A stretch of 64,000 nt of DNA from contig NZ_KI912613.1 of NCBI RefSeq assembly GCF_000519325.1, positions 3,029,432 through 3,093,431 of the forward strand, given 5' to 3'. Position numbers and translations under genes: made by a program. Below the pieces are notes generated by a model that did not search any database, was not told the origin of the DNA, and saw nothing but the letters and a program-made list of their open reading frames with translations. Below, piece after piece: positions 53,925-57,891 of this stretch. Positions within the stretch are counted from its first letter, which is position 1. Each line of letters begins with the position of its first letter. This DNA comes from Patulibacter minatonensis DSM 18081. GTDB lineage: Bacteria; Actinomycetota; Thermoleophilia; Solirubrobacterales; Solirubrobacteraceae.

Positions 53925-54165
53925 CGAGCGTTCCGGGGCCGGAGCGTGTCGGACTTCGGCGGGGCTCGGGGCACCCGGAGGGGGCCGGGCCACAGATGCG
54001 GCCCATTATCGGCAGCTGCGGACCGGACCATGAGTCTCGCCCGGCCTCTTCGTCGCCGGGTGCGAGCGGCCGTCCGACATGCGTCCACCGACCGCAGCGG
54101 GGACGCCCTCCGAGCGGTTACGGTGCACACCCCGCGTCGCCTCGCGGGCGAGAACGAGGAGCACC

Positions 54166-55131
54166 ATGCGCAGAGGTTTGTTCGTCGCGGGCGTCACGGC
54201 CGGCGTCCTGGGGGCCGGTGGAGCAGCGACCGCTTCCGCGACCCCGTTGCCGATCACGGTGGACTTCACGGCCGGCACCGTGAAGGTGGGCGATCTCGCG
54301 AAGACCACCCAGACGGAGACGTCGCACCTCGTCGGGACGATCGAGACCGACACGCTCGTCGCGACCTTCCCGGCCTCGGGCGTCACGTTCGGGAAGACGA
54401 CGGTGGGCACTCTGAGCGTCACGCCGAAGGCCACCGGGACGATCACGGGCCGCCCGAACGCCGCCACAGGCACGCTGGACCTCAGCGGCACCGTCTCGTA
54501 CGCGATCCAGGGCGACCTCGGGGCGTGCACGATCGCGCCGACGGCGCCGATCACCCTTGCCGGGTCGGGCATCAAGCCGGCCGACGGTGCCTACGGTGCC
54601 GCCGGCTCGGGCTCGAACGCGGTCGTCGGGATCCCGAGCGCCGGATGCGTGCCGTACCTCGCGTCGGCCGGCCCGCTGACGTCCACCGCGTTGTCCTATT
54701 CCGGCAAGCTCGCGATCCCGGGCGTCATCCCAACGCCGAGCTCGGTCGCCGTGATCACCCCGCCGTCGACCCCGTCGACCCCCGCCACGCCGACGACGCC
54801 CACCCCGGCGGCGAAGGGCGCGCTGAGCCTCACCGTCTCCAAGCCCGCCACCGTCAGGCGCGGGAAGAGCACCGTCACGAAGGTCGTGCTCACGAACACC
54901 GGTGCGGGGACCGCTCGCTCGGTGACGGTGAAGCTCGCCGCCTCCGGCAAGGGCGTGACGCCGCGCTCGAAGACCGCCACGTACGCGACGATTGCTGCGG
55001 GCAAGTCCCGCACGATCAACGTCCGCCTGCGGACCACGAAGAAGACGGCGAAGAGCTCGGCGATCAACGTCACGGCGAAGGGCGCCGGTGGGCTGTCTGC
55101 CTCGAAGTCCACCACGCTGCGCCTGCGCTGA
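54166..55131 (+). CDS. Secreted protein with CARDB-like C-terminal domain
   Basis: A 321-residue exported protein. The signal peptide is MRRGLFVAGVTAGVLGAGGA (cleavage near ATASA at 25). Residues 30-185 form a beta-rich Thr/Gly domain with a probable disulphide pair (GACTIAP and SAGCVPYL). A Pro/Thr linker follows (TPPSTPSTPATPTTPTPAA). Residues about 220-321 look like a CARDB/DUF11-type Ig-like fold (SLTVSKPATVRRGKSTVTKV; LTNTGAGTARSVTVKL). ATG 54166 is preceded by GAGGAG. It is likely loosely wall-associated; the function is unknown. Confidence 0.78.
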   Translation: MRRGLFVAGVTAGVLGAGGAATASATPLPITVDFTAGTVKVGDLAKTTQTETSHLVGTIETDTLVATFPASGVTFGKTTVGTLSVTPKATGTITGRPNAATGTLDLSGTVSYAIQGDLGACTIAPTAPITLAGSGIKPADGAYGAAGSGSNAVVGIPSAGCVPYLASAGPLTSTALSYSGKLAIPGVIPTPSSVAVITPPSTPSTPATPTTPTPAAKGALSLTVSKPATVRRGKSTVTKVVLTNTGAGTARSVTVKLAASGKGVTPRSKTATYATIAAGKSRTINVRLRTTKKTAKSSAINVTAKGAGGLSASKSTTLRLR

Positions 55132-55313: not shown

Positions 55314-56213
55314 ATGCCCCCGAACCAGGCCCCCGCCGACACCGCCGCCCGCAGCCTCGCCCACTGGAGCGAGGACGGCCGGCGCACCATGGAGGCCTTC
55401 TACGCCCTGGCGCGACTCGACTACCGCCTGCTGGCCGCCGAGCTCGACTACCCGGCGCTGCTCCGCGGTGTCGCCGACCGGGCCGGCGACCGCCCCCTAA
55501 CGCTCCTGGACGTCGCCTGCGGCTCGGGCAAGTTCCCCGAGACCCTGCTGTCCGACACCGGTGTCGCGTCGCTCGCCGACGAGGGCCTGCGGATCGACTA
55601 CGACCTGCTCGACCCCGCGCCCTTCTCGATCGTGGAGGCGGCCGCCGTCCTGCGCCCGCCGTTCCAAGAAGCCGCCCGGCACGAGGTGACGCTCGAGGGC
55701 CTCGACCCCGCCGTCGGCCCGTTCGACGTCGTCTGGGCCACCCACGCGCTCTACGCCCTCGAGCCCGCGCGCATCGAGGATGCCGCCCGGCGCTTCGTCG
55801 CCGCCCTCGCGCCCCACGGCGTCGGGCTGCTCGCCCAGGGCACCCACGACGGCCACTACCTCGCGTTCTACCGCGCCTTCCTCGAGGGCGTCCGGGGAGG
55901 GCAGGGCACGGAGTACGTCTCGTGCGAGCGGTTCACCGACGCGCTGCGCGAGGCCGGCGCGGGGGCCACCCACGAGGTCGACGTCCGCCGGCTCTCCTAC
56001 GAGCACGTCGTGGCCGACGACGACCGCGACGTCCTCGAGGGGTTCCTTCAGCGCTGCGCCTTCGACGACACCGTCTCGCTCGAGGAGATGCGCGCCGCGC
56101 CGGTCCTCGGCGACTACCTCGCCTCCTGCCACGACGCCGACGCCGGCGTCCACCGCTTCCGCCAGGAGGTCGACCTCGTCCTCCTCACCCCGAACGACGG
56201 GACGTCCGCATGA
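55314..56213 (+). CDS. SAM-dependent methyltransferase-like protein
   Basis: A 299-residue class I methyltransferase fold. Motif I is LTLLDVACGSGKFPETLL (about 62-79), an acidic residue region LRIDYDLLDPAPFSIVEAAA follows near 93, motif IV-like VGPFDVVWATHALYALEP is near 137, and post-motif LLAQGTHDGHYLAFYRAFLE is near 175. N-terminal helices (ARSLAHWSEDGRRTMEAFYA) form a substrate lid. The subgroup is not recognised. It is the first gene of a tight three-gene operon and overlaps the dioxygenase gene by four bases. Confidence 0.8.
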   Translation: MPPNQAPADTAARSLAHWSEDGRRTMEAFYALARLDYRLLAAELDYPALLRGVADRAGDRPLTLLDVACGSGKFPETLLSDTGVASLADEGLRIDYDLLDPAPFSIVEAAAVLRPPFQEAARHEVTLEGLDPAVGPFDVVWATHALYALEPARIEDAARRFVAALAPHGVGLLAQGTHDGHYLAFYRAFLEGVRGGQGTEYVSCERFTDALREAGAGATHEVDVRRLSYEHVVADDDRDVLEGFLQRCAFDDTVSLEEMRAAPVLGDYLASCHDADAGVHRFRQEVDLVLLTPNDGTSA

Positions 56214-57184
56214 GCACGCAGGACAGCCGCATCCTCACCGCCGAGCACGCCCGCGAGTCCGGGGTCGACAAGCCCTGGGAGGAGAGCAACGGCGCCTGGT
56301 GGGACTGGTACCTGTCGCTCGCCGCCGACGACGGCACGCCGCAGGAGCTCGTCGAGGTTGACCCGCCCGCGGCCGTCGACCCGCTGCCGCTCGCCGAGCT
56401 CGAGGAGGAGCTCCGGACGCCCTACGCCCTGACGGACGCGCAGCGCGACGGGTTCCGCCGGAACGGCTACGCGAAGCTCCAGCGGGTCCTCAGCCCGGGA
56501 GCGCTGGCGGCCGGCCGGCTCGAGGTCGAGCGGCTCGCCGCCGCGGGCGACGGCCCCGGCGCCTCGGGCTTCCTGAGCCTCGACATGATGTGGCAGGGCG
56601 ACTCCGAGGTGCTTCGCCTGTTCGCGCTCTCGCCGCGTCTCGGCCGCCTCGCCGCCGACCTGCTCGGCGTCGACGACGCCCGGATCTACCACGACAACGT
56701 CCTGTCGAAGCAGCCCGGCTGTGGACGGACGCCGTGGCACTTCGATGCCCACCACTTCCCGATCGCGTCGAAGGACATCGTCACGAGCTGGATCCCGCTG
56801 CAGGCGATCCCGGCCCCGATGGGCCCCTTGGCGTTCGCCGCCGGCGCGGAGACCTGGCGGGTCGCGGAGGGCGTCGACTTCGACAGCGCCGGCGACTCCT
56901 ACGACCGCGGCGTGGCCGAGGCGTTCGCCGCCGAGGGCGTCGAGGTCGACGACACGCCCTTCGAGCTCGGCGAGGTCTCCTTCCACCACGCCTGGTGCTT
57001 CCACTTCGCACGCGGCAACCGCACGACCCAGCCGCGCCAGGTGATGGCGACGACGTACTTCGCCGACGGCGCGAAGCTCGTCGACCAGCCGACGATGGTC
57101 TCCGGCGACTACGAGCAGTTCCTCCCCGGCGCACGTCCCGGTGAGCGGATCGACACGCCGCTGAACCCGATCGTGTCGCGGTGA
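56210..57184 (+). CDS. PhyH-family Fe(II)/2-oxoglutarate dioxygenase
   Basis: A 324-residue member of the phytanoyl-CoA dioxygenase superfamily. The iron-binding HxD is in TPWHFDAHHFPIASKDIVTS (His177, Asp179), the distal His lies in EVSFHHAWCFHFARGNRTT (about 262), and the following Arg probably holds 2-oxoglutarate. The N-terminal 75 residues carry a distinct GAWWDWYLSLAADDGTPQEL segment. It hydroxylates a small molecule. Overlaps of four bases with both neighbouring methyltransferase genes imply one pathway and perhaps one complex. Confidence 0.88.
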   Translation: MSTQDSRILTAEHARESGVDKPWEESNGAWWDWYLSLAADDGTPQELVEVDPPAAVDPLPLAELEEELRTPYALTDAQRDGFRRNGYAKLQRVLSPGALAAGRLEVERLAAAGDGPGASGFLSLDMMWQGDSEVLRLFALSPRLGRLAADLLGVDDARIYHDNVLSKQPGCGRTPWHFDAHHFPIASKDIVTSWIPLQAIPAPMGPLAFAAGAETWRVAEGVDFDSAGDSYDRGVAEAFAAEGVEVDDTPFELGEVSFHHAWCFHFARGNRTTQPRQVMATTYFADGAKLVDQPTMVSGDYEQFLPGARPGERIDTPLNPIVSR

Positions 57185-57891
57185 CCCCGGTGGCGGACGG
57201 CACGGACGGGGTCTCCCCGTCCCCGCAAGCCGGCACGGGGACGACCGCCGTGGCCACCGCCGCGGCGGGCGGCACGCCGGTGGCGGAGCCCGGCGTCGCC
57301 TACTGGCGCGACCGGGCACGCGAGCTCGGCGCCCGCGCCGTCGTCAACCTCGACCACCCCGCCGAGGACGACCTCGACGCCGTCTCCGCCGGGCACCGCG
57401 CGGCGCTCTACCCGCTGTTCTCGAAAGCCCTCCACGGCTCGGAGCGCTCCGTCCTCGACCTCGGCTGCGGCGTCGGGCGGTTCACGTCCGACCTCGCGGC
57501 GCTGGTCGGCGGCCGTGCGATCGGGGTGGACCCGGTGGCCGAGCTCCTCGCGATGGCGCCCGCCGACGAGCGCGTCGACTATCGCCTGCTGGAGGGCGAC
57601 ACCCTCCCGCTGGCCGACGACGAGGTCGACGTGGTCTTCACGTCGCTCGTCCTCGGCGGGATCCCGGGGGAGGCGCTGACGCGGACGGTCGCCGAGCTGC
57701 ACCGGGTGCTGCGGCCCGGCGGTCTCGTGTTCCTGTCGGAGTCGGTGGCCGACCGTCCCGAGCCCGGGCACTGGGCGGCCCGGACGCCGGCCGACTACGT
57801 GGTGCTGGTGCCGTGGGCGGGGCTCCGCGAGATCGGGCGCTTCGACGACGCGGGCGACGGGATCGCCGTGCTGGCGGGGCGCGCGGAGTGA
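57181..57891 (+). CDS. Class I SAM-dependent methyltransferase
   Basis: A 236-residue methyltransferase. After a disordered first 35 residues comes VAYWRDRARELGARAVVNL and then motif I SVLDLGCGVGRFTSDLAAL (about 90-108), the acidic IGVDPVAELLAMAP, and DEVDVVFTSLVLGGIPGEAL and LRPGGLVFLSES. This is the Methyltransf_11 type that acts on small molecules. GTG 57181 overlaps the dioxygenase stop. It is the last gene of the operon. Its short length suggests no separate substrate domain. Confidence 0.88.
   Translation: MTPVADGTDGVSPSPQAGTGTTAVATAAAGGTPVAEPGVAYWRDRARELGARAVVNLDHPAEDDLDAVSAGHRAALYPLFSKALHGSERSVLDLGCGVGRFTSDLAALVGGRAIGVDPVAELLAMAPADERVDYRLLEGDTLPLADDEVDVVFTSLVLGGIPGEALTRTVAELHRVLRPGGLVFLSESVADRPEPGHWAARTPADYVVLVPWAGLREIGRFDDAGDGIAVLAGRAE

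What the first reader, a model, noticed from the sequence alone, without database searches (positions are those of the whole stretch)
55314..57891. Methyltransferase-dioxygenase-methyltransferase operon of unknown product
Three genes overlap by four bases at both junctions: a class I methyltransferase of unrecognised subgroup, a PhyH-type Fe(II)/2-oxoglutarate enzyme with intact HxD...H, and a small-molecule methyltransferase. The compactness implies equal production of three tailoring enzymes, but no scaffold-forming enzyme is beside them. They may modify a primary metabolite, lipid head group or osmolyte. This is the best candidate here for an undescribed small pathway.
Basis: partly seen in the sequence, partly recalled or inferred. 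Interest (0 to 1): 0.65.

Follow-up and report, generated by a model that had tools for sequence, protein, structure and literature searches.

The report
Two-methyltransferase, one-dioxygenase metabolite cassette
Three tightly packed genes encode two methyl-transferring enzymes and one oxygen-inserting enzyme that stay together across distant actinobacteria, with one methyltransferase swapped for an unrelated one in some lineages, so they look like a complete but undescribed small-molecule pathway whose product is still unknown.

Summary
At 55314-57891 three genes overlap by exactly four bases at both joints: a class I methyltransferase (MT1), a PhyH-type Fe(II)/2-oxoglutarate dioxygenase with intact HxD...H, and a second methyltransferase (MT2). 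It is not a chance neighbourhood. MT1 and PhyH are adjacent on one strand in all 33 genomes examined (Patulibacter and other Solirubrobacterales, Pseudonocardia, Mycobacterium, one further family), mostly with the same 4-base overlap. The 'unrecognised' MT1 has the fold of histamine N-methyltransferase (HNMT; Z 20.2, best PDB match). The third gene is exchangeable: 10 of 10 Solirubrobacterales carry MT2. In 22 of 23 other genomes MT2 is missing and a divergent gene, MT3, itself an HNMT relative, stands beside MT1. MT2 orthologues and MT3 were found only in genomes with the MT1-PhyH pair. No other neighbour is conserved across lineages. This fits a self-contained pathway: two methylations and one 2-oxoglutarate-driven oxidation of a common small metabolite. 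The substrate is not shown; N-methylation of an amine, imidazole or amino acid is my best guess, with sugar-type chemistry the main rival. No described pathway matched. The enzyme folds are known; I found no description of the cassette.

The parts
55314..56213 (+). MT1: class I SAM methyltransferase with the fold of histamine N-methyltransferase; 299 aa
   Evidence: ORF; Methyltransf_12; AF2 model pLDDT 87, best PDB matches HNMT; orthologue beside PhyH in 33/33 genomes
56210..57184 (+). PhyH-type Fe(II)/2-oxoglutarate dioxygenase, 324 aa, H177xD179...H265, R276; carries an N-terminal NxxWWDWYxSLA extension not seen in the nearest plasmid relatives
   Evidence: PF05721; conserved residues; structure search SnoK/SnoN Z about 23; extension compared
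57181..57891 (+). MT2: second SAM methyltransferase (Methyltransf_11/UbiE-like), 236 aa; replaced by MT3 in other lineages
   Evidence: Pfam; orthologues only in genomes that carry the trio
56210..56213 (+). ATGA overlap of MT1 stop and PhyH start; a 4-base overlap recurs in Patulibacter 4/4, Pseudonocardia 7/9, Mycobacterium 12/12
57181..57184 (+). GTGA overlap of PhyH stop and MT2 start
56285..56323 (+). codons of the conserved N-terminal extension motif of PhyH (residues 26-38, SNGAWWDWYLSLA)
   Evidence: alignment of 14 relatives; absent from Streptomyces, Emticicia and Priestia relatives

Best explanation
A self-contained three-enzyme pathway acting on one small, widely available metabolite. 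MT1 (HNMT fold) methylates the substrate, the PhyH enzyme oxidises it (most simply a C-H hydroxylation driven by 2-oxoglutarate and O2), and a second methyltransferase adds another methyl group. MT1 and PhyH are the fixed core. The second methylation is done by MT2 in Solirubrobacterales and by the different, HNMT-type MT3 elsewhere. Shown: gene anatomy, co-inheritance, exchange of the third enzyme, folds and catalytic residues. Inferred: that all three act on the same molecule, that MT2 and MT3 do equivalent jobs, and the order (methylation before hydroxylation, by analogy with thioamitides). Most likely chemistry, weaker: N-methylation of an amine, imidazole or amino acid, giving a hydroxylated betaine-like compound (about 0.35 within this explanation).
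For: MT1 and PhyH adjacent, same strand, in 33/33 genomes of four actinobacterial groups; their distance matrices correlate (r 0.94), and the MT1 tree sets the MT2-type carriers apart as one clade (100/100). MT3 at E<=1e-10 occurs in 2 of 396 phylum genomes, precisely the two carriers of MT1-PhyH outside Solirubrobacterales in that sample; MT3 is absent from four MT2-type genomes; MT2 orthologues are absent from 11 genomes of the other arrangement and from 15 relatives without the trio, bar one partial match at E 5.6e-16. MT1: HNMT top by Foldseek (E 2.6e-12) and VIA (Z 20.2, rmsd 3.3, 256 aligned; next family 17.9). MT3: HNMT profile match E 1.4e-5, nothing else credible. No other neighbour conserved across lineages.
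Against: No substrate, product or expression data. Folds near HNMT also occur in carboxyl O- and S-methyltransferases (JHAMT, GtmA). MT1 and HNMT share only 13% identity. The nearest PhyH relatives outside the cassette lie beside sugar- and alcohol-oxidation genes. One Pseudonocardia genome (G662) has MT1-PhyH with neither MT2 nor MT3 nearby, so a third enzyme may be dispensable or elsewhere.
Confidence: 0.6

Rival explanations
1. The cassette acts on a sugar or sugar-like polyol: two O-methylations plus a 2-oxoglutarate-driven oxidation or epimerisation, making or editing a rare methylated sugar.
For: Closest solved structures of PhyH are SnoK/SnoN, which act on the aminosugar part of nogalamycin, and orthosomycin and kanamycin oxygenases rank in the lists. 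Plasmid relatives of PhyH lie beside GMC oxidoreductase, sugar transporters, trehalase-like genes and alcohol dehydrogenases. In Pseudonocardia the cassette sits between a GH57 branching-type enzyme and a GT4 glycosyltransferase, near another methyltransferase, an arrangement that I recall as like the methylglucose lipopolysaccharide locus. MT2 matches D-glucose O-methyltransferase at E 8.5e-6.
Against: MysH and proline hydroxylase H11 score nearly as well as SnoK/SnoN. In Mycobacterium, Solirubrobacterales and the fourth family no sugar genes were seen beside it. MT1 and MT3 look like HNMT rather than like sugar methyltransferases.
Confidence: 0.2
2. A tailoring cassette for a natural product whose scaffold is made by genes elsewhere in the genome.
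For: Methyltransferase plus PhyH pairs occur in natural-product clusters, for example thioamitides (PMC8153245).
Against: No scaffold gene was seen beside it in any lineage read; the cassette is found in different neighbourhoods as a small unit, which would strand it from a scaffold locus.
Confidence: 0.15
3. PhyH is a demethylase that reverses or edits the methylation made by the partner enzymes, or disposes of a methylated compound.
For: PHYHD1 and related enzymes demethylate 2'-O-methyl nucleosides (PMC12709175); one plasmid relative is followed by a class III alcohol dehydrogenase-like gene and an esterase, which would suit formaldehyde disposal.
Against: Coupling two methyltransferases to a demethylase of the same groups would be a futile cycle; no formaldehyde-handling gene travels with the cassette.
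Confidence: 0.08
4. The enzymes modify a macromolecule (protein N terminus, RNA or cell-wall polymer) rather than a free metabolite.
For: MT1 profile has weak matches to N-terminal protein methyltransferases (E 0.0036, core only); MT2 matches a phage family called tRNA methyltransferase (E 5e-10, core only).
Against: HNMT is a clearly better structural match for MT1 (Z 20.2 against about 14.5); the patchy presence among relatives suits accessory metabolism.
Confidence: 0.05

Closest known systems
Histamine N-methyltransferase (HNMT, PDB 1jqe/1jqd)
   Same: Fold of MT1 over 256 residues (Z 20.2); sequence profile of MT3 (E 1.4e-5), including the LYYV motif.
   Different: 13% identity; the residue aligned with HNMT Gln143 is an invariant His in both MT1 (H144) and MT3 (H145); bacterial, beside a dioxygenase; substrate unknown.
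SnoK / SnoN, nogalamycin carbocyclase and epimerase (PDB 5epa, 5ep9)
   Same: Closest solved relatives of PhyH by profile (E 6e-17, 3e-17) and structure (Z about 23).
   Different: About 23% identity, no polyketide or aminosugar genes here, and an N-terminal extension precedes the aligned domain; MysH and proline hydroxylases are almost as close.
Thioamitide histidine tailoring, TsaG methyltransferase plus TsaJ PhyH hydroxylase (PMC8153245)
   Same: Works alike in outline: methyltransferase and PhyH oxygenase on one substrate, methylation first.
   Different: Acts on a ribosomal peptide; TsaG is pfam06325, which MT1 and MT2 do not match; no precursor peptide gene here; ThoJ is a weak match (profile E 0.027, Z 17.3).
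Welwitindolinone clusters with WelM3, annotated histamine N-methyltransferase (PMC4236562)
   Same: An HNMT-annotated gene in a bacterial biosynthetic cluster that also holds oxygenases.
   Different: Large alkaloid clusters with scaffold genes; role of WelM3 unknown; sequence not compared here.
Glycine betaine synthesis by GSMT and SDMT (e.g. PMC3176816)
   Same: Small methyltransferase gene cluster turning a primary metabolite into a methylated solute.
   Different: No dioxygenase; different methyltransferases.

Membership tests
Histamine N-methyltransferase family (MT1) | HNMT fold along the whole chain | tested here: met
   HNMT top of Foldseek and VIA, Z 20.2, 256 of 299 residues
Histamine N-methyltransferase family (MT1) | Detectable sequence homology to HNMT | tested here: not met
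   Profile of 14 MT1 does not list HNMT at E<=1; so HNMT-like in fold, not filed as an HNMT
Histamine N-methyltransferase family (MT1) | HNMT substrate residue Gln143 (role from my own knowledge) | tested here: not met
   Aligned position is invariant His in MT1 and MT3
Histamine N-methyltransferase family (MT3) | Sequence homology over most of the chain | tested here: met
   E 1.4e-5 over profile positions 33-244 of 282
PhyH (PF05721) Fe(II)/2-oxoglutarate dioxygenases | Pfam profile above gathering score | tested here: met
   65 bits against cut-off 22
PhyH (PF05721) Fe(II)/2-oxoglutarate dioxygenases | HxD...H metal triad and 2-oxoglutarate Arg, with Asp kept (not a halogenase) | tested here: met
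   H177, D179, H265, R276 invariant
PhyH (PF05721) Fe(II)/2-oxoglutarate dioxygenases | 2-oxoglutarate-dependent turnover | not testable with these tools
   needs purified enzyme
Methylphosphonate hydroxylase / 1-deoxypentalenate hydroxylase (NCBIfam) | Score above the curated cut-off | tested here: not met
   27.9 of 500 bits and 20.1 of 550 bits
Thioamitide-type RiPP tailoring | Precursor peptide and thioamidation genes in the cluster | tested here: inconclusive
   None recognised among the neighbours read, and the three overlapping genes leave no room for a peptide gene between them; short ORFs under 80 codons were not searched systematically
Glycine betaine GSMT/SDMT pathway | GSMT and SDMT orthologues | tested here: inconclusive
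   Only generic methyltransferase matches in NCBIfam; a putative SDMT appears well down MT1's fold list

The most novel reading that the evidence does not exclude
An undescribed actinobacterial metabolite class, doubly methylated and hydroxylated, made from a primary metabolite by a mobile three-gene cassette in which one methyltransferase was exchanged for a different one that does the same step, giving bacterial HNMT-like enzymes a biosynthetic role.
Probability: 0.4. Interest if true: 0.7.

Novelty: new variant of a known kind. Interest (0 to 1): 0.5.

Why it matters
If right, it is a minimal, complete pathway that can be expressed as three genes and read out by metabolomics, in culturable species (Patulibacter americanus, Pseudonocardia, environmental Mycobacterium). 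It would give bacterial HNMT-like enzymes a function, add a metabolite shared by distant actinobacteria, and offer a clean natural example of one step of a pathway being taken over by a different enzyme.

Tried and rejected
Chance gene adjacency: rejected by 33/33 conservation. Recent insertion with foreign composition: gene GC 73-77% and GC3 about 97% are in line with a window GC of 73%. Halogenase: Asp of HxD kept. Known NCBIfam equivalogs: scores far below cut-offs. Plasmid or phage carriage: no plasmid match for MT1, no phage match for PhyH. Promoter, terminator and Rfam scans near the trio gave nothing, uninformative for a 73% GC genome. N-terminal extension of PhyH against PDB: no credible match. 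A link to methylglucose polysaccharide rests on location in Pseudonocardia only and was not kept as the main explanation. Paper searches for the gene combination found no match; the library lacks most subscription journals.

Full report
Observation. Pfam assigns MT1 to Methyltransf_12, the middle gene to PhyH and the third to Methyltransf_11. The window lies in a 5.52 Mb single-contig genome. A genome of the same genus (G069) has its match on a contig of 186,014 bases, the length of the named Patulibacter americanus record behind L005, so the window is most likely Patulibacter. The genome has one copy of MT1 and of PhyH.

Conservation. A scan of named genomes with the PhyH protein gave 14 relatives: Patulibacter and other Solirubrobacterales, Pseudonocardia and Mycobacterium. 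Every one has MT1 directly upstream. Wider searches gave 10 carriers among 232 genomes of the order, 10 of 62 genomes of Pseudonocardia, 11 of 248 sampled genomes of the Mycobacterium genus and 2 of 35 in an unnamed family of another class. In all 33 genomes whose junctions were measured, MT1 and PhyH are adjacent on one strand; the four-base overlap recurs in Patulibacter 4/4, Pseudonocardia 7/9 and Mycobacterium 12/12. MT1 and PhyH distances correlate at r 0.94, and dN/dS is 0.05-0.49 for the gene pairs tested. In the phylum sample the MT1 profile gave three strong matches, all with PhyH beside them.

The third gene is exchangeable. All 10 Solirubrobacterales carry MT2 downstream. In Pseudonocardia, Mycobacterium and the fourth family MT2 is missing, and a gene read in the opposite direction, MT3, stands upstream of MT1 in 22 of 23 genomes. 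The exception, Pseudonocardia G662, has neither nearby. MT3 is absent from four Solirubrobacterales carriers. In a 396-genome phylum sample MT3 occurs only in G418 and G289, the two carriers of MT1-PhyH there outside the order. MT2 orthologues (E below 1e-90) occur in the three trio genomes tested and in none of 15 relatives without the trio or 11 genomes of the other arrangement, apart from one partial match at E 5.6e-16. The MT1 tree sets the MT2-type carriers apart (100/100), and Mycobacterium nests among Pseudonocardia, suggesting transfer between these genera. Reciprocal, dedicated replacement of one methyltransferase by another is the best evidence that the three enzymes serve one pathway.

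What the enzymes are. The MT1 model (pLDDT 87) matches human HNMT best by Foldseek and VIA (Z 20.2, rmsd 3.3, 256 residues, 13% identity); juvenile hormone acid methyltransferase follows at 17.9. By sequence alone MT1 does not reach HNMT, so it is HNMT-like in fold, not a proven family member. MT3 does reach HNMT by profile (E 1.4e-5). MT1 and MT3 align with each other over 150 columns. In both, an invariant His stands where HNMT has Gln143, which I recall as a substrate contact. MT2 is a generic Methyltransf_11/UbiE-like enzyme; its best solved match is a phosphomethylethanolamine N-methyltransferase (E 9e-10). PhyH keeps H177, D179, H265 and R276 in all aligned relatives. Its nearest solved structures are SnoK and SnoN (E 6e-17 and 3e-17; Z about 23), with MysH and a proline hydroxylase close behind, so the structure does not name the substrate.

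A marker of the cassette. The aligned cassette PhyH proteins carry an N-terminal extension with an NxxWWDWYxSLA motif. The nearest plasmid-borne relatives, from Streptomyces (47% over the core), Emticicia (38%) and Priestia (31%), lack it, and no MT1 is annotated beside them; they lie beside GMC oxidoreductase, alcohol dehydrogenase, esterase and sugar-use genes. This is a lead towards sugar or alcohol chemistry in the wider clade, and the reason I keep a sugar-type substrate as the main rival.

Context. Neighbours differ between genera. Among Patulibacter loci the gene order downstream looks shared, but not elsewhere. In Pseudonocardia loci the cassette mostly sits between a GH57 branching-type enzyme and a GT4 glycosyltransferase; in two Mycobacterium loci it lies beside an amino acid permease; in the fourth family beside a rhodopsin-like gene in one genome. 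No additional partner conserved across lineages was found, which argues for a three-gene pathway on a ready-made substrate.

Mechanism. Most likely two SAM-dependent methylations and one 2-oxoglutarate-driven oxidation act on the same small molecule. In thioamitides methylation must precede PhyH hydroxylation (PMC8153245), and I assume the same order here. The HNMT-type folds of MT1 and MT3 and the phosphoethanolamine-methyltransferase match of MT2 favour N-methylation, but only weakly. Steps shown: anatomy, conservation, replacement, folds, catalytic residues. Steps inferred: shared substrate, equivalence of MT2 and MT3, order, N-methylation, hydroxylation rather than demethylation or epimerisation.

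Verdict. Real, conserved, undescribed as far as the libraries and papers here show, made of known enzyme folds, with product unknown. A good, inexpensive target; moderately interesting until a metabolite is found.

Noticed in passing
L009:1897-8313, L095, L096, L097: In Pseudonocardia the MT3/MT1/PhyH unit sits between a GH57 branching-type enzyme and a GT4 glycosyltransferase, with another methyltransferase gene alongside, resembling (from memory) the methylglucose lipopolysaccharide locus of mycobacteria.
   Followed up: partly
L103:7737-12337 (Streptomyces sp. NBC_01001 linear plasmid): A PhyH relative, 47% identical over the core but without the WWDWYxSLA extension, lies in a run with alpha/beta hydrolases and a GMC oxidoreductase; function unknown.
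   Followed up: partly
L104:7980-10790 (Emticicia plasmid): A PhyH relative is followed by a class III alcohol dehydrogenase-like gene and an esterase, an arrangement that would suit oxidative demethylation and formaldehyde disposal.
   Followed up: partly
L082 (Pseudonocardia G636), PhyH near 1284-2178: The PhyH match is split between two frames near residue 96, so this copy may be a pseudogene or a sequencing error.
   Followed up: no
L006:1005-1763 (Solirubrobacteraceae MAG): MT1 is shorter (252 codons) with a poorly matching middle; deletion, frameshift pair or assembly fault.
   Followed up: no
L061:2914-3876 (G289): A rhodopsin-like membrane protein gene follows the cassette directly in one genome.
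   Followed up: no
L094:9203-10081 (Pseudonocardia G662): An Oxygenase-NA family (PF09859) gene lies just after an MT1-PhyH pair that has no third methyltransferase nearby.
   Followed up: partly
54079-55131: Upstream of the trio is a secreted-looking Ala/Thr-rich protein; a similar C-terminal gene fragment precedes the trio in L002.
   Followed up: no
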